Source: a virus
Direction: 5' to 3' (one strand)
Length of the DNA: 64,000 nt
IMG/VR virus record: IMGVR_UViG_3300040801_002290
Location: 62,001-126,000 of that record
The first letter of the stretch is position 1. Every line of letters begins with the position of its first letter. The position numbers and the translations under genes were made by a program. The notes beneath the pieces are model-generated. The model saw nothing but the letters and a program-made list of their open reading frames with translations, did not search any database and was not told the DNA's origin. Positions 43,299-59,071 of the stretch are shown here, in pieces.

Positions 43299-44714
43299 TT
43301 AGATTACGTTTTCCTGCGCTACGTTAACGATTAGGAAGTTAAATTCCGGGGCGCGTGAGAACAAGGAGGATACGTGGCGGATAGCGAAGTCGCGGTTTAG
43401 GGTCTGGGGTAGCGGAACCTGCTCAAGCGGAATCCACTGTGCAAGCATGGTGGTCATAAGGTCTACACCAACTACGAATCCAGTTCCGGGGACCTTGCGG
43501 TAAGTAAAGGTACCGTAAGCTGAAACAAGGGTCTCGTGTCCGTCGTCAACTACGTTGACAGTTCCACCAGCGTATACAGGAACCTTCTTGAGGAACTTGA
43601 AGTCGCCGCCAGCGTCGGAACGGTAAACAATTAGCCACTTGGCACCGGCAGGAACAGTTGCTACAGCAAGCTGAATCTGCTGTCCAGCAGTTGGGGTTAC
43701 GGGTGCGCCAGCTTCTACGGCTTCGGACTCTCCGTTGAAGTTAGCTGCCTTTACCATGTAGTTATACTCGATTGCCTCAAGACCGGCGTTTCCAGCAGCG
43801 TTGGCCTGAGCGGTCAAGGTTACTGCGGAAGGTGCGGCTGGACGTGCGAATTCTCCACCAGTGTTACCGAAGCCCTGGTCAGTGAACTTGTGCCAGTCAC
43901 CAAGGAAACGGTCGGTTACTAGCTCGGTCTCACCGTAAGCAGAGATGTAGGTCTGGGCATCGGTTCCGAGTACGCCAGCTACGCGGTCTGCCTGGGTGGT
44001 ACGAGCAATCTGGTAGAAGCTCTGCTGTAGGTTAATCTTGTCAACAGGTGACATCATAACTACGTTCGGGCGAGCAAGTCCCTGGGTTAGGTAGACCTTG
44101 TTCTCTGCGGCCCATAGAGCGTTTAGAGAAAGCGGGCGTCCACCCAAGTCAGTTACGTTCTGCGGGGCACCGCGCTTGACGATGTTCTCAAGGCCGTCGA
44201 ACTGTAGGTTCTGCGGGCTGGAGAAATCGGTTGAACCGAAGCGGCGGTCTCCGTGGAAGAGTAGGTACTCGGTTTCTTCCATGACGGCAACCATCTTTTC
44301 GGTGCGGGCGGTCTGCTCGGCGGTCTGAACACCGGCACGGGTGGTGGCAACAGCCAATTCCGTGATGGTGATGCGGTGTCCGAGTAGGGTAGGTAGGGTG
44401 CGCCTACGGGCTACTTCTACTTCGACGGTACGAGGAACGCCACCGTCGCGGTATGCGGCGTAACCAATCTTGTCCTGACGGCTGGTTACGACGTTGTACT
44501 CATGCTCGTAAGCAGTGGCCTGAATCTTCTGGAGCCTGTCGTAGAACGGGGTTTCCAAAATGTTTAGACGCTCTAGTTCACCTTCTAGGTCCTGACGCTC
44601 CAAGCTCTGGGCAACCTGGCTGGTTCCGTCAATGGCCTTAAGAACATCTAGGGGCAGATGCTCTAGGTAATCTAGGTGGTCTGCGTAATTTCTCTGAACG
44701 ACTTCTTTAGACAT
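43299..44714 (-). CDS. Major capsid protein with inserted Ig-like domain
   Basis: The product has 471 residues. An HK97-type plan is likely: an N-terminal helical arm, a middle part with Thr-Ile-Thr-Glu-Leu-Ala, and a C-terminal part (Gly-Val-Asp-Leu-Met-Thr-Thr-Met, then Asn-Arg-Asp-Phe-Ala-Ile-Arg-His). Residues ~291-392 (Pro-Ala-Ala-Pro-Ser-Ala-Val-Thr-Leu onward) form a separate fibronectin/Ig-like domain, probably displayed outside. It follows the protease-scaffold gene with AGGAGG 12 bases before ATG. Codon use is clearly biased, as expected for the most abundant protein. Confidence 0.88.
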   Translation of the reverse strand: MSKEVVQRNYADHLDYLEHLPLDVLKAIDGTSQVAQSLERQDLEGELERLNILETPFYDRLQKIQATAYEHEYNVVTSRQDKIGYAAYRDGGVPRTVEVEVARRRTLPTLLGHRITITELAVATTRAGVQTAEQTARTEKMVAVMEETEYLLFHGDRRFGSTDFSSPQNLQFDGLENIVKRGAPQNVTDLGGRPLSLNALWAAENKVYLTQGLARPNVVMMSPVDKINLQQSFYQIARTTQADRVAGVLGTDAQTYISAYGETELVTDRFLGDWHKFTDQGFGNTGGEFARPAAPSAVTLTAQANAAGNAGLEAIEYNYMVKAANFNGESEAVEAGAPVTPTAGQQIQLAVATVPAGAKWLIVYRSDAGGDFKFLKKVPVYAGGTVNVVDDGHETLVSAYGTFTYRKVPGTGFVVGVDLMTTMLAQWIPLEQVPLPQTLNRDFAIRHVSSLFSRAPEFNFLIVNVAQENVI

Positions 44715-44736: not shown

Positions 44737-46395
44737 TTATAACTTGCCTTTATCAGCCATCTTGACGAAGTGCTTGAATTCTGGCTCTGAAAGGTTTAGG
44801 GTTTTTTGGGCCTCTTCCACAATGCGGGCGCGTTGCTGAGCATGTGCCCCAGTGTGTCCAATGATTGAGCGGTACTTTTCAGTGAATGACTTAAGTACCG
44901 TCTTGTCGTACTGTCTCTCTTCCCCGTCCTCAGTCACAGCCTTGATAACATCAAGCTTGGCTACCTCTGCGGCTTCTTCACCAGTTACAGAAGCACCTGG
45001 ATGTACTATTCTAGGCGATTCTTTTGAAGATGTCACGCTTTTGGTAACGATAGTGCTTTCTTCGGACAGCTTAGTGACAATACTTGCTGCGATTCTCTCT
45101 TCCATGTCGGCAAAGCCGCTCTGGAAAATAGACTTTAGGGCCTCGCCAAACTGAGTTGCAGAGTCTTCTGAAAGACTTACGGTTAGAGAGTCGAGGGATT
45201 CCTTAATGACCGACTTGATTATATCGGTTGGGGGTTCCGTAGTTACTTGCTCTTCGACAGGAGCTTCTTCCATCATTTCAGTAGCCTGAGAGGAGTCCGT
45301 TAGCTGCATGACCAAATCAATAAGGGTATCAACCTTATCCAATAGCATCTGAACGGAGGCATCCCCGTCTCCTGCCATTGCGTCAACTTCCTGACCTTCC
45401 TCAGAAGTTACTAGGCTGTCTAGCAAACCGCCAGCATCCTCTTCTCCTGCCTCAGCAGCACCTAGTTCTGCCATTTCCTCGGCTCCACCCTCTTCCATAG
45501 CGCCTTCTTCCTCACCAGCGAATGGTGCCTCAGCAGGGGCTTCTTCCATGGGTGCGCCTTCGGCTTCTGGAGCGGCTCCCTGAGCCTCTTCCTCTTCCAC
45601 CGGAGGGGCAGCTTTTAGTACAACTTTAACATCTTCTGCCATAGCGTTTCTAATTTCCTCCTTAACGTTTACATACGATTCGAAAACGTGAGTGGTTCCG
45701 TCCCCACCCTGAACGGTTGATTTTATAACCAACCTATCGTTTTCTTGGTCAAACAGCACGGAATCTGGTGCGATTGTGTGGTACTGAACTTCTTTTGTCT
45801 CCTCTTCATCGACCAGCATACTCTTTAGCACAGACGCCCAAGTCTTTGTGAATGGGTTTACGGGCTCCGGGGTCATAGACACTTCGTAAAGAAGAAGCTC
45901 TGGCAAATAGGTAACGTACTTACCCTTTTTGACATCGTACTCCCTACGAGGACTACCAAGATATTTAGCACCGATGGAGAGGCCGATTTGGTCGGCAAAG
46001 CTTGTGTCCTTGTTAGTAAGGAACTCCTCCCACATCTTTCTTGCCATCGGGTGAGACTTATTGAGAATTCCCTTGATGTATAAACCTTCTGGTCTAATCT
46101 GTGCATCAAGGGGCTTTCCAATTGGGGTCTTTAGACTTAGAATTTCGTCCTTGGAAAATCCGTACTTGCCCAACCAGTCATCATTCTTCTTAGCGTAATC
46201 GTGGTCGAAGTATATCTTTCCGTTGGACTTGAAAAACTCTATGGTCTGGGAGAAACTTTCTGGGTATACAACCTCACCGAATAAATCTACATCGGCGGTA
46301 GAAGCAATGCCTTCAAAGACCCAAGGCTCTTCTTCATTAGCTGAAAAAGATTTGGTAATGTCTACGGGCATGTAAAAATGAAAATTTCTATCCAT
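44737..46395 (-). CDS. Prohead protease fused to acidic scaffold
   Basis: The product has 552 residues. The HK97-like serine protease domain covers ~1-200: Ala-Asp-Val-Asp-x2-Gly-Glu-Val-Val, Tyr-Phe-Asp-His65 and Gly-Leu-Ser140-Ile-Gly-Ala-Lys supply the His and Ser. A Glu/Ala/Gly-rich acidic segment (~260-345) and a helical C-terminus follow, typical of a scaffold that is removed after assembly. A ribosome site GGTGA precedes the ATG. Its motif Val-Leu-Lys-Ser-Met also recurs in several proteins encoded upstream. Confidence 0.85.
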   Translation of the reverse strand: MDRNFHFYMPVDITKSFSANEEEPWVFEGIASTADVDLFGEVVYPESFSQTIEFFKSNGKIYFDHDYAKKNDDWLGKYGFSKDEILSLKTPIGKPLDAQIRPEGLYIKGILNKSHPMARKMWEEFLTNKDTSFADQIGLSIGAKYLGSPRREYDVKKGKYVTYLPELLLYEVSMTPEPVNPFTKTWASVLKSMLVDEEETKEVQYHTIAPDSVLFDQENDRLVIKSTVQGGDGTTHVFESYVNVKEEIRNAMAEDVKVVLKAAPPVEEEEAQGAAPEAEGAPMEEAPAEAPFAGEEEGAMEEGGAEEMAELGAAEAGEEDAGGLLDSLVTSEEGQEVDAMAGDGDASVQMLLDKVDTLIDLVMQLTDSSQATEMMEEAPVEEQVTTEPPTDIIKSVIKESLDSLTVSLSEDSATQFGEALKSIFQSGFADMEERIAASIVTKLSEESTIVTKSVTSSKESPRIVHPGASVTGEEAAEVAKLDVIKAVTEDGEERQYDKTVLKSFTEKYRSIIGHTGAHAQQRARIVEEAQKTLNLSEPEFKHFVKMADKGKL

Positions 46396-46441: not shown

Positions 46442-46464
46442 TGTATTTCGTCTGTGTTTATATT

Positions 46465-48558
46465 TTACTTCTGTGGCTGTGAAAAACTCAACCCAGGGAT
46501 AAAATTAGAGGACTTTTGTGCGTTCCCGAAAAACTTTAGAACCTCAACCATGTCTGCTTGTTGTGGTCTGCCGCCTTTTTCTGCCATAAAAAGCCTACCG
46601 TTGTCTTTTCCGCGAAGAAGAGTGATAGACTTAGCTCCGTCTGAGACCTGGAATGCAGAGCCTGGAACAACAGTGTTTACCTGTAGCCCCCTTTCTTTTA
46701 CAAAGTCTGTGAAGTCTGTTAGGAAAGGAGTATCATCCTTATGAATAAAATCCTTAAACCCAAATACTCCTATTTCAGGAGTGGGCTCCTCTGACTCTTC
46801 AAGATTATTTTCGATAACCTTTCTGGCCTCGCGCAAAGCCTTCATTCTAGCCTTTACCGCACTTTCTCTGTCACTCGTCTTCTGAACGAAAACCTCTCCA
46901 ACCTTAGCTCCCTCTGGAGAGAATACCGGCCAGGTTCCACTTGGGTCTGGAGTAAGCTTCCACCCTTCGGGTGAAATGAAGGAGTCTCCAACCTTCTCAA
47001 AACCATGCATTGCTACGGGCTTCTTTATCTCGCTTGGGACCTCTAATTCCTTCTTCGGCTTTTCCTCTGGTCCCTTGGGCTTATGATACAGTTTAAGAGT
47101 TCTGTTCTTGTACATAGCCCGCTGTCTAGACTCATCATCAATGATGTTTCCTATTAGGTCTGGACCTTCACCCTTTTGTCTACCGGTGTTAAGAGAGGCG
47201 TCCTTCCACTTATTCTGAAAAGACCTAGCAGATGGATTTTCTTCATTAAGTAGGGAAAATGCGTGAATACCGTCGATTCTTCCCAGTCTGGCAGCTATCT
47301 CTTTCATGGCCTGGACTTTAGCCTGGGTAGTTCCGTTACTGGCTTTTGCCGCAAAGCGAAGGATTTCTTCCATTTCTTGTTCTATATCAACAGACATTCC
47401 GAGAGTTACTTTTCTCTGGTACACAGAGGAAAACTCAGACTTATGAATGGCATGAAGACCCTTAGACCCGTCACTCAATTCGGAAGCAACCATAGCTCTA
47501 TCCTTCTCTGGAATAGAGTCGTATAGTCTGGCTAGGGTGTGAAGAGCAACTCTGTTTGCACCGGCAGCAGGGGAGTTTTTAAAAGCCTTAAATACACCAT
47601 AAAGAGCGGTGGACTCTTCCCTCGTATATTCATCAGGAAGTTCCTGTGGAATACTTTCTCTGCTCATAGTGCTTTCTGCCATAGGCTTCATCGGAACAAA
47701 GGTTTCTTTGCCGGTGGTAAAGTCTTGATACATCATAGAATACTTAGAGTCCAACATCTCAGATAGCTGAGAAAATGACTCGGTGTTATTCCTCATATTT
47801 TCTCGTAAATTCTTAAGACCCAATATGATGTTCGCATCGAAGAAATATTCTCTTCCATCCGGTCTGTATTCTTTATACCGGTCGTTTAGATGCTTTTTGA
47901 GGGTCGGGTAATTCTCTTCAAGTTCTTTTTCGAGAATTCCCTTTAGGCTGATTTTAGAAGGACTCGCCCCGTCCCTTGCCAACTCCGATGCACGGACCAT
48001 AAGAACATCAAAAGCCTGAATTAGAAACCACTCGACAGAGTTTGGTTTAATGTCATTCTCCTTAATTATTCTCTCTGTGTATCCTTTAAGGTAAGACTCC
48101 CACCCCCTGTCGGGTAAATTCTTTCTGGGTACAGTTGACTCCTTATTGGCTTCGTAAGTTTGCTTTCTTTTTTCATGTAAAACGTGTGAAGGTACACCCT
48201 GCTGCTGGGCTTGATTCTCAAGAGCCTGCTGGTAATACTGCTGGGCGTGCTGATAATATTGTTGCCTTTGCTGGTTGAAGGCTTCTTCATATTGCTTTTG
48301 CAATTCTGGGCTTATTTCTGCCGCCCGCTCAAGCACATCTAGCTGGTCCTCAATCTGGTTAAGTTGGGTCTGGTCAGCAGGGTCAATCTCTACCCCCTGC
48401 TCTAAAAGCCATTCGGCATATTCCTCGGCGGTAACCTGAATAGGGGTTACTTTTCCGTTGATATTTCTGAATATGACGTGCTTACCGGAATCATCTAAAT
48501 AAAACTCATCCGTTGCACGAACAGATTTTAGTATTCTAAGTGACTCTATAATGTTCAT
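46465..48558 (-). CDS. Large head-region protein of unknown function
   Basis: The product has 697 residues. Residues ~1-60 are a small alpha/beta part that contains Arg-Ile-Leu-Lys-Ser-Val. A Gln/Tyr-rich coiled segment (~85-120) is followed by a large helical middle. The C-terminal ~70 residues form a strand-rich piece ending Asn-Phe-Ile-Pro-Gly-Leu. It is not recognisable as a portal. It starts in an overlap with a 90-residue gene and lies just before the protease gene, so a head-associated or ejected protein is plausible. Confidence 0.6.
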   Translation of the reverse strand: MNIIESLRILKSVRATDEFYLDDSGKHVIFRNINGKVTPIQVTAEEYAEWLLEQGVEIDPADQTQLNQIEDQLDVLERAAEISPELQKQYEEAFNQQRQQYYQHAQQYYQQALENQAQQQGVPSHVLHEKRKQTYEANKESTVPRKNLPDRGWESYLKGYTERIIKENDIKPNSVEWFLIQAFDVLMVRASELARDGASPSKISLKGILEKELEENYPTLKKHLNDRYKEYRPDGREYFFDANIILGLKNLRENMRNNTESFSQLSEMLDSKYSMMYQDFTTGKETFVPMKPMAESTMSRESIPQELPDEYTREESTALYGVFKAFKNSPAAGANRVALHTLARLYDSIPEKDRAMVASELSDGSKGLHAIHKSEFSSVYQRKVTLGMSVDIEQEMEEILRFAAKASNGTTQAKVQAMKEIAARLGRIDGIHAFSLLNEENPSARSFQNKWKDASLNTGRQKGEGPDLIGNIIDDESRQRAMYKNRTLKLYHKPKGPEEKPKKELEVPSEIKKPVAMHGFEKVGDSFISPEGWKLTPDPSGTWPVFSPEGAKVGEVFVQKTSDRESAVKARMKALREARKVIENNLEESEEPTPEIGVFGFKDFIHKDDTPFLTDFTDFVKERGLQVNTVVPGSAFQVSDGAKSITLLRGKDNGRLFMAEKGGRPQQADMVEVLKFFGNAQKSSNFIPGLSFSQPQK

Positions 48559-48827
48559 AGATAATCCAAGTTAGTTGCTGGGAATCCAAACCTCTGTGCC
48601 TCTACTTTCAACTCTTCAATCCATTCGATTAGCTCTGCTTCTTCTAGGGTGGGATATTCTCCCTTTAAGGCATAGAAGGATTGTAGGAAGTCAAAATACT
48701 CGTTGAATAGGGTGCCTTCCGGGTCAGAGATTTCTTTGGGCATGTGATGAGTAACTACGTCAAAGTCTCTTTGCGCGTACAACTCAGTAAGTGTTCTTAA
48801 CGCGAAGCGTCTCTCTTCATCTATCAT
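48555..48827 (-). CDS. Small acidic helical protein
   Basis: The product has 90 residues. Its ATG overlaps the helicase stop (ATGA) and its own stop overlaps the next start, so it is tightly coupled in both directions. It is rich in Glu, Leu and Phe with two or three predicted helices (Glu-Tyr-Phe-Asp-Phe-Leu-Gln-Ser-Phe-Tyr). It could be a small partner of the helicase or the 697-residue protein. No family recognised. Confidence 0.55.
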   Translation of the reverse strand: MIDEERRFALRTLTELYAQRDFDVVTHHMPKEISDPEGTLFNEYFDFLQSFYALKGEYPTLEEAELIEWIEELKVEAQRFGFPATNLDYL

Positions 48828-51800
48828 AGTCGTCCCGCCTCTTCCTCTCTAATCCTCGGTCTGTATTGAGACATTCTCTTCAAGAAGGACATTGCTTCCT
48901 TCTCGTCAATATCATCTTCTTCCTCAGAAGCACCAGTAAGAACAGCGCCCCTGGTCTCAAGCTCCATCTTGCGCTTCTTCTGTTCTACTTCCCTCATATA
49001 TTGACATATACCATCTGGAACTACAACTGTTACCAGATTTTCTTGGCTGGGACTTCTATGGAATCTGCCCTCATACTGACCAGCCTTGGCTGAATTCCAT
49101 GTAGCAAGCCTAAAGCTTCTGGTAGAAGGAAGAGAAAGTCCGTAAAGTCCAGCGGAGGTAACGATAGTAATTACTGGTCTACCAGTTTCTGTCTGGTGCC
49201 TCTTCTGCTTCACGCTAACTTCTTCCGCTGGAGTGTCACCGTCAATAATCTGAATGACTGCCTTATCCCCGTATTTTTCTAGAAGCTTTCTATACACAGC
49301 GTTCATGGCAACCTTTGAGAACCCGGCCACACCAATTTTCGGAGGCTCTCCGGGAACTTGGTTAACAATCTCTGTCTCAATTCCATCTACAATAGAATCA
49401 AGAATTGGAGCATCCCACGAAAATACCGCTCTGTCCATAGCCGCTCTGGATGTTTCACTGAAAACAGCATTGTAGACAGCATTTCTTTCATTTACATCGC
49501 CCGACTTAGGCAAAATTCCTACACCAAATGACTCTTCGGTAACCTGGTTTCTGAATTCAAGCAATTCTTCACGGAATTTTACGTAGTCCTCTGGCTTTAG
49601 AATCTTAGACACTGAGTCCATCAATTCTCTCGCGCCCAAATCGTACTCTATAATTCTGGCTGGGCTCACAGCACCAAGCGAGGCTTGAGTTAGAACACTC
49701 ATTAGACCTAGAGCTTTTCTCATCTTCTTAGCTTCCGCTAGAGCCTGTAGCTTTCTTTCAGCGGCGAGATAAACTTTACCCCAGGTAGAACCCAACTCTG
49801 AGCCTATGTCAGTAGTTCTAGCAAGACCGTACTTATCTCCAGCGATTGTTTGTCCATCCAGAGTATAGATTTGCGGTCTAAACGTAGAAGTAAAGTCATT
49901 CATTCTTCTGACATCCTTCCAGATTCTTCGCCCCAAATCCTTAGATGCTCTAGTTTGCTGAGCATCGTGGTCCTTTTTAGTGTATTCATGCACCACAGTG
50001 TTGTAGTTATCCCTAACCAACTTATTTATAAAGGAAACCTCGGACACCGTATCACTAGCTGAGTTACCAGAAATATCACCGTTAAGGCTCCAGGTCAATC
50101 CTCCACCCTGATAAGTGGACTCAATAATCTCATGCAAAGCAGTATGTCTGGAGGAGCCTGGGTTTACGTATTGGCCCGACTCATCTATTACTATAGCGGA
50201 GACATGTCCCCCAGCTACGGGCTTTTCTCTATAAGAGCCCCCCAAGGCAAGAAGCTTCATGTACTGAGCATCTAACCCTAGCAAGTCTTCTTCCTCACCG
50301 GAGGTGTATCTGAACTTGGAGCTACCCAAAACAATCATGTTGGGTAGGTTACCAGTCTGGGCTCTGCTAATCAAATCTTCCCACTGGGCGGTGCGGGTCT
50401 CTCTGTCTCCATCAATGACAATAGCGTCTTCGTTTCTGAATTTAGCAATTTCGGACTGCCAAACATAAACATTCTTGTTTGGAGCAGTAACAATGGTTAC
50501 TTGCTCTCCAACCTTGAATCTACCTCTGTTTCTCATAATGGCGTCAGCGGCAGTTACGATAGCTGTCTTTCCAAGTCCGTAGGTAAAGTTTAGAAACTGA
50601 CCATGCCAACCCTGTGGTCCACCATAAATCTCATACTGAGACTCTTCGGTAAGTGCAAGTATTCCTGGACGCTGATAGTCAAACGGCTCCATAACGAAGT
50701 TTGCATAAAGTCCGTGCAAGTCATCCAGGGGAATCTTACCGGCCTCTTTTGAGATTTCATGTCGCCCGGTAACTTCGTTATACTCAGCCGTCATTGCCTT
50801 TATCTTCTTCATGTTCTCAGCGGCTAGTTTATACTTCTCTACGTACTCGGCACTTCTAGCCAGGTCCAGAGTCAGGCGTGTAGATGACATCTGATTAATC
50901 TCCATGTTGCCCTGGCCCGGAAGTGAAAACTTAAATCCGGAGGAAACATCTAAATTCTTTTCCGTCTGAACTACTCCACTCTCAAGACCTGTGATTAACT
51001 GAGGTGTCAACCCCGTGATAGAGGCATACATTTCTCTATCTGATTCATCAATGCCTAGGGTATCAAAAACATACCAAGAAAGTTTCTCGTACCCCTCGAT
51101 GGGCGGTGGCCAGTTCTCTGAGAGTAGTGCATACCCCGTAGTTGGAGAATACATAATTCTTCCGGGGGAAAGCGAGGTAGGTGTTGGGGCTTCTGGAACA
51201 ATTTCTTCTTCCCGTGGTTTCATTACCTCAGAAAGACGCTTACCAGATTGAGGCTTGAAATCAGTGTAATAGTACTCGCCTTCTTTTCTCTCTTCGTAAA
51301 CCTTCTCGTCTGCTCCGGGGTGGTATTCCTGAACATACATGTCCATATTTTCTTTGTCGGATTGGCGTTCTTCCGGAGACATATTTTCATAGGGGTTTTC
51401 TACTAAAGTCCAATCGGCATCTTCTTTGTCGATATTAGCGTTTATCCAACCACCAGCGGCGATAGTCCTTCCGTCTGTATGGACGGCTATATACCCTGTA
51501 GGCACACGCCTCACGATTCTTTCGCCCTGAGCATTATTATAAATATCACTAGCGGACTTGGTTACAAGAAAACCTAAGTCTAAAAGATTAATGGATTTAT
51601 GGGTTTCGTTGACAAAGCGGCAGTTATACCCCTTCCAAGAAAGAATCTCTGGCAATGCCTCTAAAAACTCTATTGTGTTCGGATAGACAACCAAAACACC
51701 ATCAGCAAAGAAGTTGGGACCAAAGCGGCCCGGAGCAAGAATGTACGCTTCGGTTGACATTAACCGCTCTATATGCTGCTTCATCTTTACATTGTCGCTA

Positions 51801-51901
51801 TAGACAGAGGTAGTAACAGTACCATCCATCTGATTGTATGGAACAATCTCGGCGGTACTCTTATCCATTGAATCGTTTATTAGGCTGACTTTATAGTACA
51901 T
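48824..51901 (-). CDS. SNF2-type superfamily 2 helicase in head gene region
   Basis: The product has 1025 residues. Residues ~1-400 are an unfamiliar N-terminal region with strand-rich parts and a Pro/Glu linker. The helicase core has Asp-Tyr-Gln-Arg-Pro (Q-like motif, ~408-412), Gly-Leu-Gly-Lys-Thr (442-446, Walker A), Ile-Asp-Glu-Ser (572-575, Walker B), and near the end Gly-Leu-x-Leu-Pro, then Gln-x-Glu-Gly-Arg-Phe-His-Arg-Ser-Pro-Ser-Gln, a motif V/VI block typical of SNF2. It would be a DNA translocase. Overlaps with neighbours place it in a head-region operon, so it may be packaged and injected, like P1 DarB. Confidence 0.78.
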   Translation of the reverse strand: MYYKVSLINDSMDKSTAEIVPYNQMDGTVTTSVYSDNVKMKQHIERLMSTEAYILAPGRFGPNFFADGVLVVYPNTIEFLEALPEILSWKGYNCRFVNETHKSINLLDLGFLVTKSASDIYNNAQGERIVRRVPTGYIAVHTDGRTIAAGGWINANIDKEDADWTLVENPYENMSPEERQSDKENMDMYVQEYHPGADEKVYEERKEGEYYYTDFKPQSGKRLSEVMKPREEEIVPEAPTPTSLSPGRIMYSPTTGYALLSENWPPPIEGYEKLSWYVFDTLGIDESDREMYASITGLTPQLITGLESGVVQTEKNLDVSSGFKFSLPGQGNMEINQMSSTRLTLDLARSAEYVEKYKLAAENMKKIKAMTAEYNEVTGRHEISKEAGKIPLDDLHGLYANFVMEPFDYQRPGILALTEESQYEIYGGPQGWHGQFLNFTYGLGKTAIVTAADAIMRNRGRFKVGEQVTIVTAPNKNVYVWQSEIAKFRNEDAIVIDGDRETRTAQWEDLISRAQTGNLPNMIVLGSSKFRYTSGEEEDLLGLDAQYMKLLALGGSYREKPVAGGHVSAIVIDESGQYVNPGSSRHTALHEIIESTYQGGGLTWSLNGDISGNSASDTVSEVSFINKLVRDNYNTVVHEYTKKDHDAQQTRASKDLGRRIWKDVRRMNDFTSTFRPQIYTLDGQTIAGDKYGLARTTDIGSELGSTWGKVYLAAERKLQALAEAKKMRKALGLMSVLTQASLGAVSPARIIEYDLGARELMDSVSKILKPEDYVKFREELLEFRNQVTEESFGVGILPKSGDVNERNAVYNAVFSETSRAAMDRAVFSWDAPILDSIVDGIETEIVNQVPGEPPKIGVAGFSKVAMNAVYRKLLEKYGDKAVIQIIDGDTPAEEVSVKQKRHQTETGRPVITIVTSAGLYGLSLPSTRSFRLATWNSAKAGQYEGRFHRSPSQENLVTVVVPDGICQYMREVEQKKRKMELETRGAVLTGASEEEDDIDEKEAMSFLKRMSQYRPRIREEEAGRL

Positions 51902-52784
51902 GTCCGTAGTCCTTAAGTATACCTTCGATTAGGTCCAACTTCTCAGGAAAAGCTCTTTCAAGATACTTTTGATTGGTGAAGTAAAGAGCGAATAACTCAG
52001 CGAAGTCATCCATTGGTGTGAACTTACTAGCCTCGGTCTTTACCCTTTTCCCCAGACCGCGCTTCCAAACAGTCTCTTCGTTTACGTACTCAAGATAACC
52101 AGCCTGAGTGTTCTCATTAGATTCATGCTTAGACCAACCACTGAATTCTAGTAAAGAGCCTAACTGCTTTATCTTACCATCATGCATGAGTCTTGCAAAC
52201 ATTAGGTGTCCAAGGGAATGAAAAACAGAGTAAGCTGCAACACTAAGTCCCTGGTCTAGCCCTGGAATTTTCCCTATTAGAGGGGCAGAGACATACTTAT
52301 AAAAACTAGGGTAGACTATCAGCTTTCCGGTAAATCCGTTTCCGGAGGTGTACTGAGCCTTGATTACGGTTTCTCCGTAAATAGACAAAGCATCCTGTTC
52401 TTCCCTAGTACCAGCATCCACATAAGATAGACCCAAAGACTTTATGAAACTATCTCTTCCATCAAGAACATCTACCAAGACGGCTGATGAATATTTAGGA
52501 ACATTGGAGTTGATGTGAACCCCGGAAATTTCTGGAGTCCAAGCTTCCAGCCTCTTCTCGTCAACATTTCCTGCATCATCATAAATAGGTAGTTTTTTAG
52601 ACACAAGTCCAGCATTGTCAGCCTGAGCCAAAGAAAGGCTTGACAATTCGTCCATTGTAGGGGCGAACTGACCACCACGGTACACACCGCCGCCCGGTGT
52701 GGGGTCTCCAGGCATAATAGGAGAACCTGGTTCTCCAATTCTGGTTCTAAGAAGCCTTTTGTCAATTTTACCAGTTTCAGGCAT
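51891..52784 (-). CDS. Zincin-like protein lacking the catalytic Glu
   Basis: The product has 297 residues from ATG 52784 (ribosome site GGAG); the longer frame starts with TTG. The C-terminal ~120 residues resemble the lethal-factor-like metallopeptidase fold: His189-Ser-Leu-Gly-His193 in a helix, then Asp-Asp-Phe-Ala-Glu263-Leu-Phe-Ala-Leu-Tyr supplying a third ligand, and a Phe-Pro-Glu tail. The usual HExxH has Ser in place of Glu, so metal binding is possible but proteolysis is not expected. The N-terminal ~60 residues are Pro/Gly-rich and extended. It is coupled to the helicase gene. Confidence 0.6.
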   Translation of the reverse strand: MPETGKIDKRLLRTRIGEPGSPIMPGDPTPGGGVYRGGQFAPTMDELSSLSLAQADNAGLVSKKLPIYDDAGNVDEKRLEAWTPEISGVHINSNVPKYSSAVLVDVLDGRDSFIKSLGLSYVDAGTREEQDALSIYGETVIKAQYTSGNGFTGKLIVYPSFYKYVSAPLIGKIPGLDQGLSVAAYSVFHSLGHLMFARLMHDGKIKQLGSLLEFSGWSKHESNENTQAGYLEYVNEETVWKRGLGKRVKTEASKFTPMDDFAELFALYFTNQKYLERAFPEKLDLIEGILKDYGHVL

Positions 52785-53115
52785 CTTTATCTCCAAAGCT
52801 GGAAAGAACGTCGTATAGAGTTTTCTCTGCGTTTGGAATCTTCATATTCACAGAGGAAATCTTTTCCTGAAAGTATTTAGCTAAGGACTTTGCGTCGTTG
52901 TCATTGTACACCCTGACATCTCCAAGCCCTAGGTTAGAAAATAATAAATTCTTAGAACCGTCGATTATATCGTCCAGAGAAAAGTTATGAAGAATAGGAG
53001 TGTACCCATCGCTCTTTCTGAGTACATAGGTAACCTCTCCGTCTGAAACGTAAATTTCCTTAAGCTCAAACTTATTGTCTTGATTATACATAACACGAGA
53101 AGATATCTTTAGCAT
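52777..53115 (-). CDS. Small hypothetical protein
   Basis: The product has 112 residues from ATG 53115, which follows GGGGTGA; GTG 53124 overlaps the preceding stop and is the alternative. The first ~60 residues alternate strands (Glu-Leu-Lys-Glu-Ile-Tyr-Val, Val-Thr-Tyr-Val-Leu), then helices follow. It is not recognised. It lies in a chain of overlapping genes, 53121 to 46465, that appear to be made together. Confidence 0.55.
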   Translation of the reverse strand: MLKISSRVMYNQDNKFELKEIYVSDGEVTYVLRKSDGYTPILHNFSLDDIIDGSKNLLFSNLGLGDVRVYNDNDAKSLAKYFQEKISSVNMKIPNAEKTLYDVLSSFGDKDA

Positions 53116-53120
53116 TTCAT

Positions 53121-54605
53121 TCACCCCACGATAATCTTTCTGGCTTTTTCAAAATACCGCTTGATACCTTCAAACTGGTATGGGTAAGAGGACAGGTCCA
53201 AGTTGTAAGAAGCTATCTTAGTTTTAACATTCTCTGGGACAGAGTTTATCATTGAGGAGAGAACCTCTGGATTAGTCACAGAAAAGAAGGTTTGAAAGGA
53301 CTCGGGCGAAAGCTCTCCAAATTCTCCTAGAGAAAGTGTGTCCAATACACCTTCATCCATCGTAAAGTAATCTAGAGAGTGGTTACTGAAAACCTTTCCG
53401 GAAACACTATCCACAGAGAATGAGGACGGGCTGAACCACATGTTTCCAAGAAGAAGTCCGTCTATAACAACCAATGTTGAGATACTAGCCATCAGGTTGG
53501 AAGAAAAACCAGAGGAACGCTTTGATGAAAACACTCTATTAATAATGTCAAGAGTTTCACTAAACGTAGCATCTGAAAATTCAGCCGGGTAAAGTTCTGT
53601 CATCAATGCAATTGTGTTCCTAAAGTCCTTTATTTCTACGACCTCAGGGAAAACTACTTTGGTGCCTTGCAATAAGTCCATCTTTACTTTAGCGGCTATA
53701 GAGGAAAGTAAGTACTTGTTAACCATGTAAGGCTTGTTTACATCATCCTCTACAGCCTTCATGCTATAGCGAGTTTCGCCCTTCTCAAAAATTGCTTTTT
53801 CTGAGAATGGGAAGGTTAGCTGGCTGGAAAGTCTATAGCCCTCTTTGTAAATATCTACCATAGAAACACCGTCAATTATGGTGTTATACCGGGAGGACTT
53901 TTTAAGTATTCTTCTTAGGGCGTTGTAATTGATTACATAACCCGCAAATTTATCATCAGAAACTCTGGCCAAAAGAACGTCTAGGTTTCCAGTTGCAGCT
54001 AAAGAGTCTGCATCGTGACCAAGTGTTTTTGCAAGGGCGGAAATCTTAGAAGCAACTCCGTCTTCTAAGAAAACATGGGCAGAAGATTCATCAAATGAGA
54101 GGGTGGCAACCTCTTTAAATAAAGGAGCCCTACCCGTCATCTCAATAATTCTCTGTAAGTCTCCGTTTACCAACCAGTACTGGTTTGCTTCCTTCCTTAT
54201 TTGCCATCCCTTTAGAATCATCTGCTCTGAGTAAAGAACAATTTCCTTATCTGTCTTGCCATCTAAGTCCTTGTCCTTAAGGTAGTGAAAAATTCCCATA
54301 TGATTCTCAGAACCGAAAATGTTTTCTAAAAGAGCTTGTCTATATCTACTAGCATACCCTAGAGTAAGTAATTTGGAAGCAACATAGGGCTGTAGTATCT
54401 CTTCCAAACTGTCGCTATACAAAGCTACAAACTCCTCTGTAACTATATCTGGTAGAGGAGCTAGCCTATTGGGGTCTCCAAGAGTAGCATAGACAATCTG
54501 CTTCTTTTGGGCCTTTTTGGGTTTGGAGTTTTTAGCCCTCGGTGAACTCTTCGTCACAGTTGGCTTAATGTTATCAAGTATTTTGGAAAAGTCTAACTTT
54601 AGCAT
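53121..54605 (-). CDS. Large protein with weak kinase-like C-terminal pattern
   Basis: The product has 494 residues from ATG 54605 after GAGGACAACAC. The longer frame from 54653 would start upstream of the promoter's transcription start. A basic Lys/Pro-rich N-terminus (~13-36) precedes a helical body. Near residue 390-420, Val-Val-Ile-Asp-Gly-Leu-Leu-Leu-Gly-Asn and then Ser-Gly-Lys-Val-Phe-x-Asn-His-Ser-Leu-Asp-Tyr vaguely recall the catalytic loop and metal site of HipA/PI-kinase-like folds, but key Asp and Arg residues are missing. Treat it as unknown. Confidence 0.55.
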   Translation of the reverse strand: MLKLDFSKILDNIKPTVTKSSPRAKNSKPKKAQKKQIVYATLGDPNRLAPLPDIVTEEFVALYSDSLEEILQPYVASKLLTLGYASRYRQALLENIFGSENHMGIFHYLKDKDLDGKTDKEIVLYSEQMILKGWQIRKEANQYWLVNGDLQRIIEMTGRAPLFKEVATLSFDESSAHVFLEDGVASKISALAKTLGHDADSLAATGNLDVLLARVSDDKFAGYVINYNALRRILKKSSRYNTIIDGVSMVDIYKEGYRLSSQLTFPFSEKAIFEKGETRYSMKAVEDDVNKPYMVNKYLLSSIAAKVKMDLLQGTKVVFPEVVEIKDFRNTIALMTELYPAEFSDATFSETLDIINRVFSSKRSSGFSSNLMASISTLVVIDGLLLGNMWFSPSSFSVDSVSGKVFSNHSLDYFTMDEGVLDTLSLGEFGELSPESFQTFFSVTNPEVLSSMINSVPENVKTKIASYNLDLSSYPYQFEGIKRYFEKARKIIVG

Positions 54606-54623
54606 GTGTTGTCCTCTTTGAGG

Positions 54624-54653
54624 ATTATACCACAGAACTTTAGCGGAGTCCAA
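54624..54653 (-). promoter_or_regulatory. Promoter for accessory head-region operon
   Basis: On the minus strand TTGGAC (plus 54648-54653) and TATAAT (plus 54624-54629) are 18 bp apart, preceded by TGG (extended -10). The start is near 54617, 12 bases before ATG 54605. The block TGGACTCCGCTAAA recurs almost unchanged at the 57.9 kb promoter and may be an operator. Confidence 0.6.
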
Positions 54654-54655
54654 AG

Positions 54656-54681
54656 AAAAAGCGGGATTGAAGCCCCGCTTT
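54656..54681 (-). terminator. Rho-independent terminator
   Basis: On the minus strand AAAGCGGG and CCCGCTTT (plus 54674-54681 and 54658-54665) pair over 8 bp and lead into a T5 run. It follows the 661-residue gene and precedes the next promoter. Confidence 0.88.
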
Positions 54682-54702
54682 TATTATAGACTTTAATTTA
54701 TT

Positions 54703-56688
54703 TTATGCCTTATCAGCATCTACAAACTTGCCCTCAGCAGTGACCGTGGTTCCCCTCTTCGGGTGACCTGGTTCGTTTGCGTATTCTTTAGAAGTAAGAA
54801 TTGTATGGGGTGCCTTTTCCTTCATAGCCTTGCCCTGGGCATCAAGAGAATCCTTTCTCTTTTTGTCATCAGGCCAACTGCCAACGTCCGGGTTGTAGCC
54901 TTTTAGAACATCCTCTACAATTTCTGAAACAGACTTCTTGCTATCGTCAAGTGTGGAAAGTACGCCAGAAACGATGTCAAGCATAACGGACTTTAGACTT
55001 TCTCCCGAAAGAATCGCCGCTCTTACCTTGCTGCTAGACTTCTCTTCCTTAGGCTTTGCTTCCTTCTTTTCCTTACTAGCCAGGTACTTATCCTCTCGGT
55101 TAATTACCTTATCTTCCCAGAACTTGGACTTCAATACTTCCTGAACAATGTCTGAGACAATGGACTTAGCTACCTTCTTTACCTTTGGAGTTTGTGGAGA
55201 GTCGTCGGAGTAATCATCGTCGTCGTTATCGTCATCGTCCTTTCCTCCCCAATGGCTGTCGAAGTATGCTCTACCATAAATTCCGCTATCCCCAGGAATT
55301 CCACCACCGGAATTCTTATCATACGCTTTTCGTAATTCCTTCTGGCTCTCTTCTGAGTCTGCAAAACCAGAGCCATCAGAGCCGTGAGAGTGAGGTGGTT
55401 GAACCATAGATTCGCCCTTTGGACCCTTGTATCTGTGGGCTAGTACTGTGGCTGGGTTTTTTCCTGCTGCATCAAGTTGCTCATCCATGTGCTTGGTTGG
55501 GTTCTTAACATCGTGAACAACCGTGTCCTTGGGCATTAGTTTCTTGTCCCCACGAAGAGTGTCCTTCTTGGGGTTGTACTTAGCTCCCTTCACAACACGG
55601 TTTCCGAAAGCACCAACAGCCTCTCGCTGAGGAATTTCGTCAACGATAAAGCGCATTCTAGGACCAAACTCTCTTCTCTCTGAGGTTGTGGTGGGACGAA
55701 CCTTATAAAGACTAGGGTCTGGGTTGTTCCAAGCGCGTGCCTCACTTAGGGACTTAAAAACAATTCCCTTCTTAGTGCCGTGCTTCTTGTCCCAGTTTCT
55801 TGCTGCTTCTGCATCAGTTTTTCCATAATCTAAAGCCGCATCACTCATGCCACCAACCTGTCTCTTTGGCTTCTTGGCATTGAATTCAGCATCGCTCATT
55901 TCTTCTAGCTCTCTGTCCTTTGCGGCGTGGTAATCATAATCCGCTTTCTCGTAGTCAGCGTCTGAAAAAGCCTTTTTAGCGTCTTCCTCCTTAAGGTCTT
56001 CTTTCAGGGGCTTGTTTGTAGCTACTGCATTGTCAATTTCGGCTGCTCTTGCGCCCTGAGGAGCAAACTCACCAAACTTATCGTAATGGTCCTGATAGGG
56101 GTTGGTCTTTGGCATTTTAATGCGAGCCTTCATAGTGTCTGGCTCTTCTGCGGACTTCTTGGTGTCCTTACCCTTACCCTTCATCTTCTTTGCTTTTTCA
56201 TCTACCATTTTTCCAGCGGCGTCATCGTCACCCTTTTCTGGTTTTGATGTGCCCTGAACATCGTCATCCATCTTTGTTTCTTTCGGGGAGAGGTTCTTCT
56301 TGATAGTCTCTCTGACTGACTTGGACACAAGCTCATTGATAGGCAAGTCACTTCCAGAGGACAATTCTTCAATAACCTGTTGAACAATAATGGAAGCTAA
56401 TTTTCTGCCGTGCTTCTTGTCATCCCAGTCCTTAGGGTCAATACCATCAGCGTTTTCAAGCTTTTCTTTCATTGGGGCATTTTTCCCGCTGTGCCCTGGG
56501 TGAGTTCTGGATGGGATTGAATAAGGCTCCTTGGGAACAGTAGATACTGGACGGCCCTCTGAAATAGCTTCATGGGTGGCGTCCATATCCCCCTTTTCAT
56601 AGTCAGGTTTGGCGACGTAACCAGCCAGCTTTACGTCTTCTGACTGTAGAGCCTCTAATAGACTAGTTTTAAGAGCTTCGTAGTCCAT
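54703..56688 (-). CDS. Long charged low-complexity protein with shared module
   Basis: The product has 661 residues, very rich in Lys, Asp and Glu. Residues ~295-345 form a module (Phe-Lys-Ser-Leu-x-Glu-Ala-Arg-Ala-Trp-Asn-Asn-Pro-Asp, Tyr-Lys-Val, Ser-Glu-Arg-Arg-x-Phe-Gly) that also occurs in the upstream gene's product. A poly-Asp stretch lies near 475-490. Several amphipathic helices share the pattern Ser-Ile-Val-x-Asp-Ile-Val-x-Glu-Val-Leu-Lys. No enzyme motif is seen. It shares a base with the preceding gene's end and ends at a terminator. A capsid-internal or scaffold-like role is possible. Confidence 0.6.
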   Translation of the reverse strand: MDYEALKTSLLEALQSEDVKLAGYVAKPDYEKGDMDATHEAISEGRPVSTVPKEPYSIPSRTHPGHSGKNAPMKEKLENADGIDPKDWDDKKHGRKLASIIVQQVIEELSSGSDLPINELVSKSVRETIKKNLSPKETKMDDDVQGTSKPEKGDDDAAGKMVDEKAKKMKGKGKDTKKSAEEPDTMKARIKMPKTNPYQDHYDKFGEFAPQGARAAEIDNAVATNKPLKEDLKEEDAKKAFSDADYEKADYDYHAAKDRELEEMSDAEFNAKKPKRQVGGMSDAALDYGKTDAEAARNWDKKHGTKKGIVFKSLSEARAWNNPDPSLYKVRPTTTSERREFGPRMRFIVDEIPQREAVGAFGNRVVKGAKYNPKKDTLRGDKKLMPKDTVVHDVKNPTKHMDEQLDAAGKNPATVLAHRYKGPKGESMVQPPHSHGSDGSGFADSEESQKELRKAYDKNSGGGIPGDSGIYGRAYFDSHWGGKDDDDNDDDDYSDDSPQTPKVKKVAKSIVSDIVQEVLKSKFWEDKVINREDKYLASKEKKEAKPKEEKSSSKVRAAILSGESLKSVMLDIVSGVLSTLDDSKKSVSEIVEDVLKGYNPDVGSWPDDKKRKDSLDAQGKAMKEKAPHTILTSKEYANEPGHPKRGTTVTAEGKFVDADKA

Positions 56689-57914
56689 TATTCCTCCCTT
56701 GCAGGAAGTAAGTCTTCTACTACCTCGTCAATGATGGACTTTAGAATCTGCTCGTCGTCCAACATGCTCTTTAGTGCGTCTACTTTCTTAGCCCTGGCTT
56801 CTACGGCATCGGTGCCACCGTCATCGGACACAGACTCTGGAGCGGTAAGCCCCTGAGTCCTCTTATCGGCTTCGGTGGAAGTAGCAGACTTTAGAGAGTG
56901 TTCGTACCACTCAAAGCGTCCACGAACTACGTACTTAGCGTCTTCACCAAAAAGCTTTCTTTCGCTTTCTGAAACAGGAGCCACCTGGTAAACACCGATA
57001 TCTGGGTTCTTCCAAGCACGGGCTTCATCTACTGACTTGAAGGTCATGTACATGTAATCATCGGCGTCTTCAACGCTCTTACGGGCAGTATTTCCGGGCT
57101 GGGCTAGAACTTCCTTACCTGAGTTATGGTCAGCTTCGTGAGTTGCAGAGTCAACTGCCTCGTCACTTACTGCCTCGCCGTCCATTTCTGGGTCGCGTAC
57201 ATCTGCGGCGGGGGCGTCATGCTCAAACCCGGCCTTAGCTTCTGCGTCAGAAATTGCCTCGTTGTCCCTTAGGGCATGTCCAAAGTCAGCGTTTTCAGTA
57301 GCTTCACCCATTGAGGCGAGAGCTTCTGAATCCTCAAGAGCCTTCATTACCGTCTCTAGGGACTTGATAACCATTTCCGCGTCGGTACTTACTTCACCAT
57401 CGAAATCGTAGGTGTATTCTCCAGCGGACTTTAGGGCGTCCTTCAAAGCTGAGGAAATGTAGTCCTTAACCATCTTATGCCACTTCTCAGTTAGGCACGG
57501 TCCAAAGGAGTCTACTTCCATGTAACCCTTGTCCATCATTACCTTGATAATTTCTCCAACGTCGCTCTTCTTTAGAACATTAACAACGGGGGACAAATCT
57601 TCTTCCATGATAACGTGGCTAGCACTTGGCATTGGGTTAACCGGTGGCAACCCAAGCGGGTCCATGAGGCTACCGTAGGACTTTAGTGTTTCAGTATCTA
57701 CAACCTTGGCATTTGGGTACTTAGAACGCATGAGACGAGCCCAGTCTTCCGCACCAGCAGAAGTCCTCATGCTCTTTAGGACTATAGCTTTCTTCGTCAT
57801 TTTAACTCCTTTTTTGGCCTTTTTGATGGAAGCCTGACAAATAGCCCAAGCGGAGGATTCATCGTGACCCTCGTCCATGAGCTTCTTGACGCATCTGTCT
57901 AGTTTTTCTGGCAT
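56688..57914 (-). CDS. Acidic head-region protein with Cys-containing N-terminal motif
   Basis: The product has 408 residues from ATG 57914 (ribosome site AGGTG); GTG 57923 lies at the predicted transcription start. The N-terminus, Leu-Asp-Arg-Cys-Val-Lys-Lys-Leu-Met ... Ser-Ala-Trp-Ala-Ile-Cys, is a motif often seen in phage head-region proteins. The middle is acidic with helices; residues ~285-330 carry the same Glu-Ala-Arg-Ala-Trp-Lys-Asn-Pro-Asp module as the next gene's product. The C-terminus has Ala-Leu-Lys-Ser-Met and Leu-Lys-Ser-Ile-Ile. It is probably a virion or assembly protein. Confidence 0.6.
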   Translation of the reverse strand: MPEKLDRCVKKLMDEGHDESSAWAICQASIKKAKKGVKMTKKAIVLKSMRTSAGAEDWARLMRSKYPNAKVVDTETLKSYGSLMDPLGLPPVNPMPSASHVIMEEDLSPVVNVLKKSDVGEIIKVMMDKGYMEVDSFGPCLTEKWHKMVKDYISSALKDALKSAGEYTYDFDGEVSTDAEMVIKSLETVMKALEDSEALASMGEATENADFGHALRDNEAISDAEAKAGFEHDAPAADVRDPEMDGEAVSDEAVDSATHEADHNSGKEVLAQPGNTARKSVEDADDYMYMTFKSVDEARAWKNPDIGVYQVAPVSESERKLFGEDAKYVVRGRFEWYEHSLKSATSTEADKRTQGLTAPESVSDDGGTDAVEARAKKVDALKSMLDDEQILKSIIDEVVEDLLPAREE

Positions 57915-57931
57915 ATTTAACACCTGTGGAC

Positions 57932-57960
57932 ATTATGCCACATTTTAGTGGAGTCCACAA
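57932..57960 (-). promoter_or_regulatory. Promoter for the two module-sharing genes
   Basis: On the minus strand TTGTGG (plus 57955-57960) and CATAAT (plus 57932-57937) are 17 bp apart, with a TGG extended -10. The start is near 57925, 11 bases before ATG 57914. It shares TGGACTCC(A/G)CTAAA and TGTGG(C/T)ATAAT with the promoter at 54624-54653. Confidence 0.65.
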
Positions 57961-57961
57961 A

Positions 57962-58363
57962 TTAAGACTCAAGAAACCTTTTGAATCTTTCTACCTCGGA
58001 TTTAGAGGGAACATACTCCTTCATATCCGGTGAAGATAAAAATGCCGCGCTTCTTCCGCTTATTTGCATAAGTTCCTTCTTTCCTAGGTATTTCAGTTTA
58101 TGAGTTCTAGTAAAGATGGACAATAGAAGCTTGTCTTTCTTTGAGAGGCTTCCCTTTACTTCTACATATGTTCCGTATGAGGGAAGATAAAAATCCGGTA
58201 GATAGCTTAGACTCTTAGAGAAGAAGAACCTTCTGGGCTCATACATGAAGTATATGTCTCCGTATAGTAGTAGCTTGGCTACGTATACTTCCCATCTACT
58301 TCTGTATTTTATTCCTCTATAGGTAGTTTCAGAACCCTTTTTAAATACTCGTTTTAAAGGCAT
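57962..58363 (-). CDS. PD-(D/E)XK endonuclease
   Basis: The product has 133 residues from ATG 58363. Small nuclease layout: Arg-Ser-Arg-Trp-Glu-Val-Tyr helix (~20-30), Tyr-Glu-Pro-Arg-Arg-Phe, Tyr-Leu-Pro-Asp-Phe-Tyr-Leu-Pro, then Tyr-Val-Glu-Val-Lys-Gly. The Asp, Glu and Lys form the metal site of the PD-(D/E)XK superfamily, with similarity in plan to phage endonucleases of the T7 endo I or Vsr-like groups. It could nick or resolve DNA in packaging, or cut host or competitor DNA. Its place in the head region is unusual. Confidence 0.78.
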   Translation of the reverse strand: MPLKRVFKKGSETTYRGIKYRSRWEVYVAKLLLYGDIYFMYEPRRFFFSKSLSYLPDFYLPSYGTYVEVKGSLSKKDKLLLSIFTRTHKLKYLGKKELMQISGRSAAFLSSPDMKEYVPSKSEVERFKRFLES

Positions 58364-58402
58364 ATTCACCAGAATAACAAATCCTGATGAATATTTCTAT
58401 GA

Positions 58403-59071
58403 TTAGTATGTATTTTTTCCCGTTGCGTACGGACCAAAGTGGTCGTACTCAGATTTCGGAGTAGCTCTGCTAATCTCATATTCAAGCATAGCAAGCTGCT
58501 CTGTTGAATACATATCAGATAGTTGAGGCTTGTCTACGATTCTGTCGGACACAGCCCTAACCCCATCAGCAACAGCAAGGGGTAGGGGGTCTACACCATT
58601 GTTGGTAACTCGGTCATAAACTTCTTGGTTATAGAAGGCGTCTGGATTTTCATACGTGCCGCCGCTTTCACTCATGTATGGTGAAACTCTCGGAGCATCA
58701 ATACGAATTTCTTCTCCATCACTAATAATTCCACTAATGTAGGCAGAGTCCTCTACATTAATAGTTTCGCTTTCGGTGCTGTACAGGTAGAACTTAATAG
58801 CCTCCTGTAAGCGTACCGCGTCTTCTGGAGAATATGCAGGAGCAGAACCAGCAAAATCGGTTCCCTCGTAATATAGGTCCCAAGCGGTTGGGTAAAGAGT
58901 AACCATTTCATCGTAGGCTTCTTCACTGCTTAGGTCGAACTCTACTACCTTCCTGTACCTCTCGCCAAGAGAGTCTACAGGGGTATCCAAAGTGATTTTT
59001 GCAGCCGGTACTGGCTGATAAGTGTTTAGGGTATCTAAATCGGTGACACCACCGTATTCATCTCTTGCCAT
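58403..59071 (-). CDS. Hypothetical virion-region protein
   Basis: The product has 222 residues and GGAGGAGG precedes the ATG. It is acidic and Tyr-rich, with many short Ser/Asp/Pro turns and a helical C-terminus (Ser-Thr-Glu-Gln-Leu-Ala-Met-Leu-Glu-Tyr). No catalytic motif or signal peptide. It has its own promoter (59096-59125) and lies between the fibre cluster and the nuclease gene. A structural or adaptor role is only a guess. Confidence 0.55.
   Translation of the reverse strand: MARDEYGGVTDLDTLNTYQPVPAAKITLDTPVDSLGERYRKVVEFDLSSEEAYDEMVTLYPTAWDLYYEGTDFAGSAPAYSPEDAVRLQEAIKFYLYSTESETINVEDSAYISGIISDGEEIRIDAPRVSPYMSESGGTYENPDAFYNQEVYDRVTNNGVDPLPLAVADGVRAVSDRIVDKPQLSDMYSTEQLAMLEYEISRATPKSEYDHFGPYATGKNTY

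What the first reader, a model, noticed from the sequence alone, without database searches (positions are those of the whole stretch)
46465..59071. Unusual head-region block of enzymes and charged proteins
Between the prohead protease and the fibre cluster lie about ten mostly overlapping genes that are not standard structural proteins: an SNF2 helicase, a zincin-like protein, a PD-(D/E)XK nuclease, two charged proteins with a shared module, and several large unknowns. In most myophages terminase and portal would sit here. Their own promoters and terminators and their position suggest proteins packaged in the head and ejected with DNA, perhaps against host defences.
Basis: inference. Interest (0 to 1): 0.65.

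Follow-up and report, generated by a model that had tools for sequence, protein, structure and literature searches.

The report
Late enzyme-like cassette beside phage head genes
Next to the capsid genes of a large tailed phage related to the Thermus phages phiYS40/TMA sits a ten-gene cassette, conserved in close relatives, whose core is a DNA-translocase-like protein and a protease-like protein that has lost its catalytic residue; it probably supplies proteins that travel in the head with the DNA, but no experiment available here shows that.

Summary
The block is real: ten minus-strand genes between the fibre cluster and the prohead protease, six of nine junctions overlapping. The phage is a distant relative of Thermus phages phiYS40/TMA (capsid protein 51% identical). 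The full gene order recurs in one IMG/VR contig; a second keeps the first six genes before it ends. In phiYS40 only the SNF2-zincin pair and the flanking protease/capsid genes are recognisable. Portal and large terminase lie elsewhere in the same genome, as in phiYS40.

The PD-(D/E)XK protein is closest to T7-endonuclease-I/Holliday-resolvase-type phage nucleases. The outermost gene looks like a fibre-side structural protein in relatives. Consensus promoters and terminators are no more frequent than chance; one intrinsic terminator is convincing.

New: a ~60-residue module in the SNF2 protein is shared with other giant phiYS40 proteins beside portal or protease, suggesting a common destination. 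Packaging and ejection remain the best inference (about 0.5), unproven; the anti-defence role is weaker.

The parts
58403..59071 (-). 222-aa acidic protein (pI 4.1); relatives have a 406-aa version with beta-rich, fibre-like stretches; probably a structural protein next to the fibre cluster
   Evidence: ortholog 38% in G001; 406-aa orthologs in G001 and G002; no family match; beta-rich reading is by eye
57962..58369 (-). 135-aa PD-(D/E)XK nuclease, T7-endonuclease-I / Holliday-junction-resolvase-like; PD..EVK motif intact
   Evidence: PHROG 9019 2.2e-20; tblastn to phage 'endonuclease I'/'Holliday junction resolvase'; three-way alignment
56688..57923 (-). 411-aa acidic protein (net -30), shares a module with the 661-aa neighbour; one protein (508-590 aa) in relatives
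54703..56688 (-). 661-aa highly charged, probably largely disordered protein carrying the same module
   Evidence: BLAST 411 vs 661 E about 1e-8; composition; disorder is a reading of the composition, not computed
56874..57068 (-). shared module in the 411-aa protein (aa 286-350)
55585..55788 (-). shared module in the 661-aa protein (aa 301-368)
54657..54682 (-). intrinsic terminator hairpin between the 661-aa and 510-aa genes
   Evidence: RNA fold -14.1 kcal/mol, z -3.2; sequence
53121..54653 (-). 510-aa conserved protein, no known family
   Evidence: orthologs about 40% in G001 and G002; AF2 model unusable, pLDDT 43.7
52777..53124 (-). 115-aa conserved protein, no known family
   Evidence: 48-49% orthologs in G001/G002
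51891..52796 (-). 301-aa M34-like zincin-fold protein, probable pseudo-protease; homolog of phiYS40 gp80
   Evidence: Foldseek to anthrax LF/PPEP-1 and phage M34-like/MuF proteins; tblastn to phiYS40/TMA E about 1e-17
52206..52220 (-). degenerate zinc site HSLGH (HExxH expected; catalytic Glu missing)
   Evidence: alignments
48824..51901 (-). 1025-aa SNF2-type ATPase/translocase, positional counterpart of phiYS40 gp79; motifs GLGKT, DESG, QYEGRFHR present
51362..51568 (-). ~60-aa module in the SNF2 protein (aa 112-180) shared with phiYS40 gp2, gp76, gp77 and gp79
50564..50578 (-). Walker A motif GLGKT; the relative G001 carries an intein between its K and T
48555..48827 (-). 90-aa acidic protein, no known family
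   Evidence: 36% ortholog in G001
46465..48558 (-). 697-aa protein upstream of the protease, no known family; 1069 aa in G001
   Evidence: 37% ortholog in G001, E 9e-125
44737..46395 (-). prohead (head maturation) protease flanking the block; long and acidic
   Evidence: PHROG 32465 2.7e-21; charge
43299..44714 (-). major head protein flanking the block
   Evidence: PHROG 752 1.7e-64; 51% identity to phiYS40/TMA major head protein

Best explanation
The block is a late cassette of phiYS40-like phages, transcribed with the head genes, whose core products are virion-internal (head) proteins. Its conserved heart is a SNF2-type dsDNA translocase together with a zincin-fold partner that has lost protease activity and probably acts as a structural or docking protein; a ~60-residue module in the SNF2 protein, shared with other giant proteins encoded beside portal and protease, would direct these proteins into the prohead. 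The charged 411/661-aa proteins would be internal head (core or DNA-contacting) proteins. After adsorption the cargo would enter the cell with the DNA, where the translocase would act on incoming DNA, for example clearing host proteins such as restriction complexes. Shown: gene content, order, conservation, homologies, the module, loss of the zincin glutamate, displacement of portal and terminase. Inferred: late expression, packaging, ejection and any anti-defence role.
For: Block conserved in order upstream of protease and capsid gene in G001, and its first six genes in G002 until that contig ends. The helicase-zincin pair sits in the same place in phiYS40 and TMA. Module shared by the SNF2 protein, gp2 (beside portal), gp76 and gp77: profiles built without the target find it among the best non-members, E 0.006 to 2e-5. 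M34-like zincins recur in large phages and match MuF-type minor capsid proteins. SNF2 and zincin domains are the commonest shared domains of ejected phage polyvalent proteins, which lie beside late virion genes (PMC5512222); P1 DarB, encoded beside the portal gene, is a head protein with a homologous ATPase core.
Against: No proteomic, expression or genetic data for this phage; the published virion proteomes of phiYS40 and phiTMA could not be read. No DNA methylase domain found in the SNF2 protein, unlike DarB. The resolvase-like nuclease and SNF2 protein could serve replication or packaging in the producing cell. Several of the ten genes (510, 115, 90, 697 aa) match nothing known. The module is securely found in only one window protein.
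Confidence: 0.5

Rival explanations
1. Late DNA-maturation functions that act in the producing cell and are not packaged: the PD-(D/E)XK resolvase removes branches and the SNF2 translocase remodels or clears DNA so that concatemers can be packaged, as the T4 late resolvase gp49 does (own knowledge).
For: The nuclease is closest to T7-endonuclease-I/Holliday-resolvase-type phage proteins; the SNF2 protein has an intact ATPase core but no methylase found.
Against: The SNF2 protein shares a module with non-helicase giants beside portal and protease; the zincin partner, not the nuclease, is the conserved neighbour of the helicase in phiYS40; no counterpart of this nuclease was found in the phiYS40 block.
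Confidence: 0.25
2. Mostly structural and assembly proteins: the block supplies scaffold or core, neck and fibre-attachment proteins, and the enzyme-like folds are reused as structural parts (pseudo-enzymes).
For: Zincin catalytic motif lost in all lineages seen; the 222/406-aa protein looks fibre-like in relatives; several proteins strongly acidic; position between fibre genes and protease.
Against: The SNF2 ATPase motifs and the PD..EVK motif are intact, which structural reuse alone would not maintain.
Confidence: 0.2
3. Early-expressed host-takeover or anti-defence genes that merely lie next to head genes.
For: Enzyme-like content; separate transcription possible (terminator at 54657-54682; promoter-like site upstream of 59071).
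Against: Same strand and tightly packed with the protease and capsid genes; order conserved in relatives.
Confidence: 0.05

Closest known systems
Thermus phages phiYS40 / TMA / YS40_Isch, block gp75-gp82
   Same: Same position upstream of prohead protease and major head protein; adjacent SNF2-type helicase (gp79) and zincin-like homolog (gp80); giant late proteins; portal elsewhere in the genome
   Different: phiYS40 has two 1.5-1.7 kaa giants (gp76, gp77) and gp81/gp82 where the window has the 697, 510, 411 and 661-aa proteins; no recognisable homology there; no counterpart of the nuclease found in this block
IMG/VR contigs IMGVR_UViG_3300009702_000014 (G001) and IMGVR_UViG_3300003886_000001 (G002)
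   Same: G001: whole block, same order. G002: 406 aa, nuclease, charged protein, 510, 115 and zincin, same order until the contig ends
   Different: One charged protein instead of the 411/661 pair; longer 406-aa first protein; G001 helicase carries an intein and its 697-aa ortholog has about 370 extra residues
P1 antirestriction head proteins DarB/Ulx and DdrB, DarA, Hdf
   Same: SNF2-type ATPase with a homologous core (28% over 141 aa), encoded beside the portal gene, packaged in the head; P1 DdrB has a zincin domain according to PMC5512222
   Different: DarB is fused to an N6-adenine methylase, none found here; different architecture; no DarA/Hdf/Ulx/DdrA homolog was identified (family scans only)
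Phage polyvalent proteins (Iyer et al. 2017, PMC5512222)
   Same: SNF2 and zincin domains encoded beside late virion genes
   Different: Here they are separate polypeptides and the zincin lacks its catalytic residue

Membership tests
phiYS40-like Thermus myophage lineage | Homologous major head protein, protease, sheath, terminase and portal | tested here: met
   51% MHP, 49% portal, 42% terminase, 31% sheath, 33% protease
phiYS40-like Thermus myophage lineage | Helicase plus gp80-like gene upstream of the protease | tested here: met
phiYS40-like Thermus myophage lineage | Infects Thermus | not testable with these tools
   host unknown; the record is a virus contig without a named host
DarB-type antirestriction protein | SNF2/SF2 ATPase core | tested here: met
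   28% over 141 aa, E 5e-5 for the single comparison
DarB-type antirestriction protein | N6-adenine methylase domain in the same protein | tested here: not met
   no methylase match while the P1 DarB control shows N6_Mtase
DarB-type antirestriction protein | Packaged in the head and protects DNA in cis | not testable with these tools
   no virion data
Polyvalent protein | Several unrelated enzymatic domains in one polypeptide | tested here: not met
   SNF2 and zincin are separate ORFs
Polyvalent protein | Encoded beside late virion genes | tested here: met
M34/PPEP-like zincin metalloprotease | Fold | tested here: met
   Foldseek prob 0.99 to anthrax LF, E 1.9e-3; moderate-confidence model
M34/PPEP-like zincin metalloprotease | HExxH catalytic motif | tested here: not met
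   HSLGH here; HAVGH, HSIGH, REIAN in relatives
T7 endonuclease I / Holliday-resolvase-type PD-(D/E)XK | Sequence family and PD..ExK motif | tested here: met
T7 endonuclease I / Holliday-resolvase-type PD-(D/E)XK | Cleaves branched DNA | not testable with these tools
   needs biochemistry

The most novel reading that the evidence does not exclude
The ~60-residue 'VPxGY...W.L' module on the SNF2 protein and on phiYS40 gp2, gp76, gp77 and gp79 is a folded head-targeting tag that sorts several giant proteins into the prohead for ejection, and the catalytically dead zincin is a dedicated partner of the SNF2 translocase.
Probability: 0.22. Interest if true: 0.7.

Novelty: new variant of a known kind. 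Interest (0 to 1): 0.47.

Why it matters
If these proteins are packaged, the phiYS40-like lineage has its own ejected-protein arsenal, built from separate genes at the place where an annotated Herelleviridae relative keeps the portal. A common module across unrelated giant proteins would give a simple, testable signal for predicting which phage proteins ride in the head, and the dead zincin would show a protease fold reused as a structural partner.

Tried and rejected
Portal hidden among the unknowns: rejected, portal is at G000:143705-145981. Nucleotide search in phages and protein searches with the window SNF2 in phages and viral contigs: nothing. Homology of the 510, 697, 411, 661, 222, 115 or 90-aa proteins to phiYS40 gp75-78/gp81/gp82 by hhalign: none convincing (best P 0.02). 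Family libraries incl. PADLOC: no convincing hit for those proteins. AF2 of the 510-aa protein: pLDDT 43.7, not used. N-terminal 'DRCVKKLM..AWAICQAS' motif of the 411-aa protein: no phage match. PDB sequence searches with zincin, module and helicase profiles: nothing significant. Capsid-protein scan of bacterial genomes for prophage relatives: none. Module in the 1112-aa protein after the portal: only weak (hhalign P 0.011). One tape-measure family query was irrelevant here. The phiYS40 and phiTMA papers are not held.

Full report
1. What is there. The window is bases 62001-126000 of a 194,021-bp virus record. Between 46465 and 59071 ten minus-strand genes encode proteins of 222, 135, 411, 661, 510, 115, 301, 1025, 90 and 697 aa in order of transcription. 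Six of nine junctions overlap, and the other gaps are 33, 38 and 49 bases. Downstream follow a head maturation protease (PHROG 32465, 2.7e-21) and the major head protein (PHROG 752, 1.7e-64), then tail genes including the sheath.

2. Which phage this is. The major head protein is 51% identical to that of Thermus phages phiYS40, TMA and YS40_Isch, and only 23-25% identical to Herelleviridae and Bacteroides phages. A 202-kb IMG/VR contig (G001, IMGVR_UViG_3300009702_000014) is closer, with 78% identity. The portal (49% to phiYS40 gp3) is at G000:143705-145981 and the large terminase (42% to gp62) at G000:40953-42884, both outside the window. In phiYS40 the portal is likewise far from the capsid gene. 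In the Herelleviridae relative AVP, annotated as such, portal directly precedes the protease.

3. Conservation. All ten genes have counterparts in the same order in G001, except that the 411/661 pair corresponds to one 590-aa protein. A third contig (G002, IMGVR_UViG_3300003886_000001) has 406-aa, nuclease, 508-aa charged, 504-aa, 113-aa and zincin genes in the same order until it ends. In phiYS40 only the zincin (E about 1e-17 to 1e-22) and the helicase (E about 1e-6 in the ATPase core) are recognisable, as adjacent genes in the same place. Profile comparison of the other block proteins with gp75-gp78, gp81 and gp82 found nothing convincing.

4. The individual proteins. The 1025-aa protein has SNF2-type motifs (GLGKT, DESG, QYEGRFHR), matches a phage DNA-helicase PHROG at 3.5e-9, and its ATPase core aligns with P1 DarB at 28% over 141 aa (single-comparison E 5e-5). 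phiYS40 gp79 passes the Pfam cut-off for Helicase_C and comes near that for SNF2. The 301-aa protein gave an AF2 model of moderate confidence (pLDDT 65.7); Foldseek's best solved matches are anthrax lethal factor and PPEP-1 (prob 0.99, E 1.9e-3), and its best viral matches are M34-like phage peptidases and MuF-type minor capsid proteins. The expected HExxH reads HSLGH here, HAVGH in G001, HSIGH in G002 and REIAN in phiYS40. The general base is missing in the first three and both histidines in the fourth, so this is probably a pseudo-protease. The 135-aa nuclease has PD..EVK intact and matches phage proteins annotated endonuclease I or Holliday junction resolvase. The 222-aa protein corresponds to a 406-aa protein in relatives whose extra parts look beta-rich and fibre-like by eye. 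The 411- and 661-aa proteins share a ~60-aa module (1e-8).

5. A module shared by giant late proteins. Residues 112-180 of the SNF2 protein resemble the N-termini of phiYS40 gp76 and gp77 (just upstream of the protease), gp2 (directly after the portal gene gp3) and a stretch of gp79. Profiles were rebuilt without the target: the gp76/gp77 profile finds gp2 as the best non-member (6.6e-4) but the SNF2 proteins only at 0.6-1.8; the SNF2/gp79 profile finds gp2 (0.004) and gp76 (0.006) as the next best; the SNF2/gp79/gp2 profile finds the gp76 group at 2e-5 to 2e-4; the combined gp76/77/79/SNF2 profile finds gp2 at 8e-7. The very small E-values include training sequences and are not evidence. No solved structure matches the module. 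The window genome's own post-portal giant (1112 aa) shows only a weak match (P 0.011). The link between the SNF2 protein and gp76 is therefore good but not overwhelming.

6. Regulation. Consensus promoters and terminators in 44001-64000 are not above shuffled expectation. The gap before the 510-aa gene holds a clear intrinsic terminator (54657-54682, z -3.2), and a stable hairpin overlies the start region of the 411-aa gene (z -3.4). A 10/12 promoter match lies upstream of the first gene. This permits sub-operons but does not prove them.

7. How it most likely works. The best reading is a late cassette whose core products are put into the head: an SNF2 dsDNA translocase with a structural zincin partner, plus charged internal proteins, entering the cell with the DNA. 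The precedents are phage polyvalent proteins, where SNF2 and zincin domains are the commonest shared ones and genes lie beside late virion genes (PMC5512222), and P1, where DarB is a head protein encoded beside the portal gene. Here no methylase domain was found in the SNF2 protein (the DarB control shows one), so DarB-type cis-methylation by this protein is unlikely, and an anti-defence role would have to act by translocation or displacement. Expression timing, packaging, ejection and function in the cell are inferred. The main rival is late DNA debranching or remodelling in the producing cell, using the resolvase-like nuclease; another is that much of the block is plain structure. The phiYS40 and phiTMA virion proteomes, which bear directly on this, are not in the paper library.

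8. Verdict. It is a new variant of a known kind: ejected or late head-associated proteins in a little-studied lineage, with a probable pseudo-zincin and a shared module as the new elements.

Noticed in passing
L023:6766-10983 (G001 helicase); window equivalent 50564-50578: The G001 ortholog of the SNF2 protein carries a ~340-aa intein with a LAGLIDADG_3 domain (Pfam 2.3e-7) inserted exactly at Walker A, between K and T of GLGKT; its first residue appears to be Gly instead of the usual Cys/Ser. The window copy has no intein.
   Followed up: partly
G000:139637-140410 (outside the window) and window 43299-44714: A 257-aa protein of the portal cluster, and its 269-aa G001 ortholog, carries near its C-terminus the same ~27-aa segment (AGGVAQALERQDLEG) as the N-terminal arm of the major head protein; possibly a capsid-binding or scaffold-related peptide. 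The G002 265-aa frame that matches the capsid protein at residues 19-54 may be the same gene.
   Followed up: partly
G000:140407-143745 (L011): A 1112-aa protein directly after the portal gene, positional counterpart of phiYS40 gp2, with no family match and only a weak match to the shared module.
   Followed up: partly
57920-57965: Stable hairpin (z -3.4) whose 3' arm ends just before the GTG start of the 411-aa gene; possible translational control.
   Followed up: no
43248-43300: Strong hairpin (z -2.9) directly after the major head protein gene and before the next gene.
   Followed up: no
13113-13811: Likely endolysin (PHROG 435, 2.1e-20).
   Followed up: no
G000:137840-139573: tRNA nucleotidyltransferase-like gene (PHROG 2244, 1.9e-72) in the portal cluster.
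   Followed up: no
44737-46395: The prohead protease is long (552 aa) and strongly acidic (net -54), and there is no separate gene between protease and capsid, unlike in the AVP comparator; its C-terminal half may serve as scaffold.
   Followed up: no
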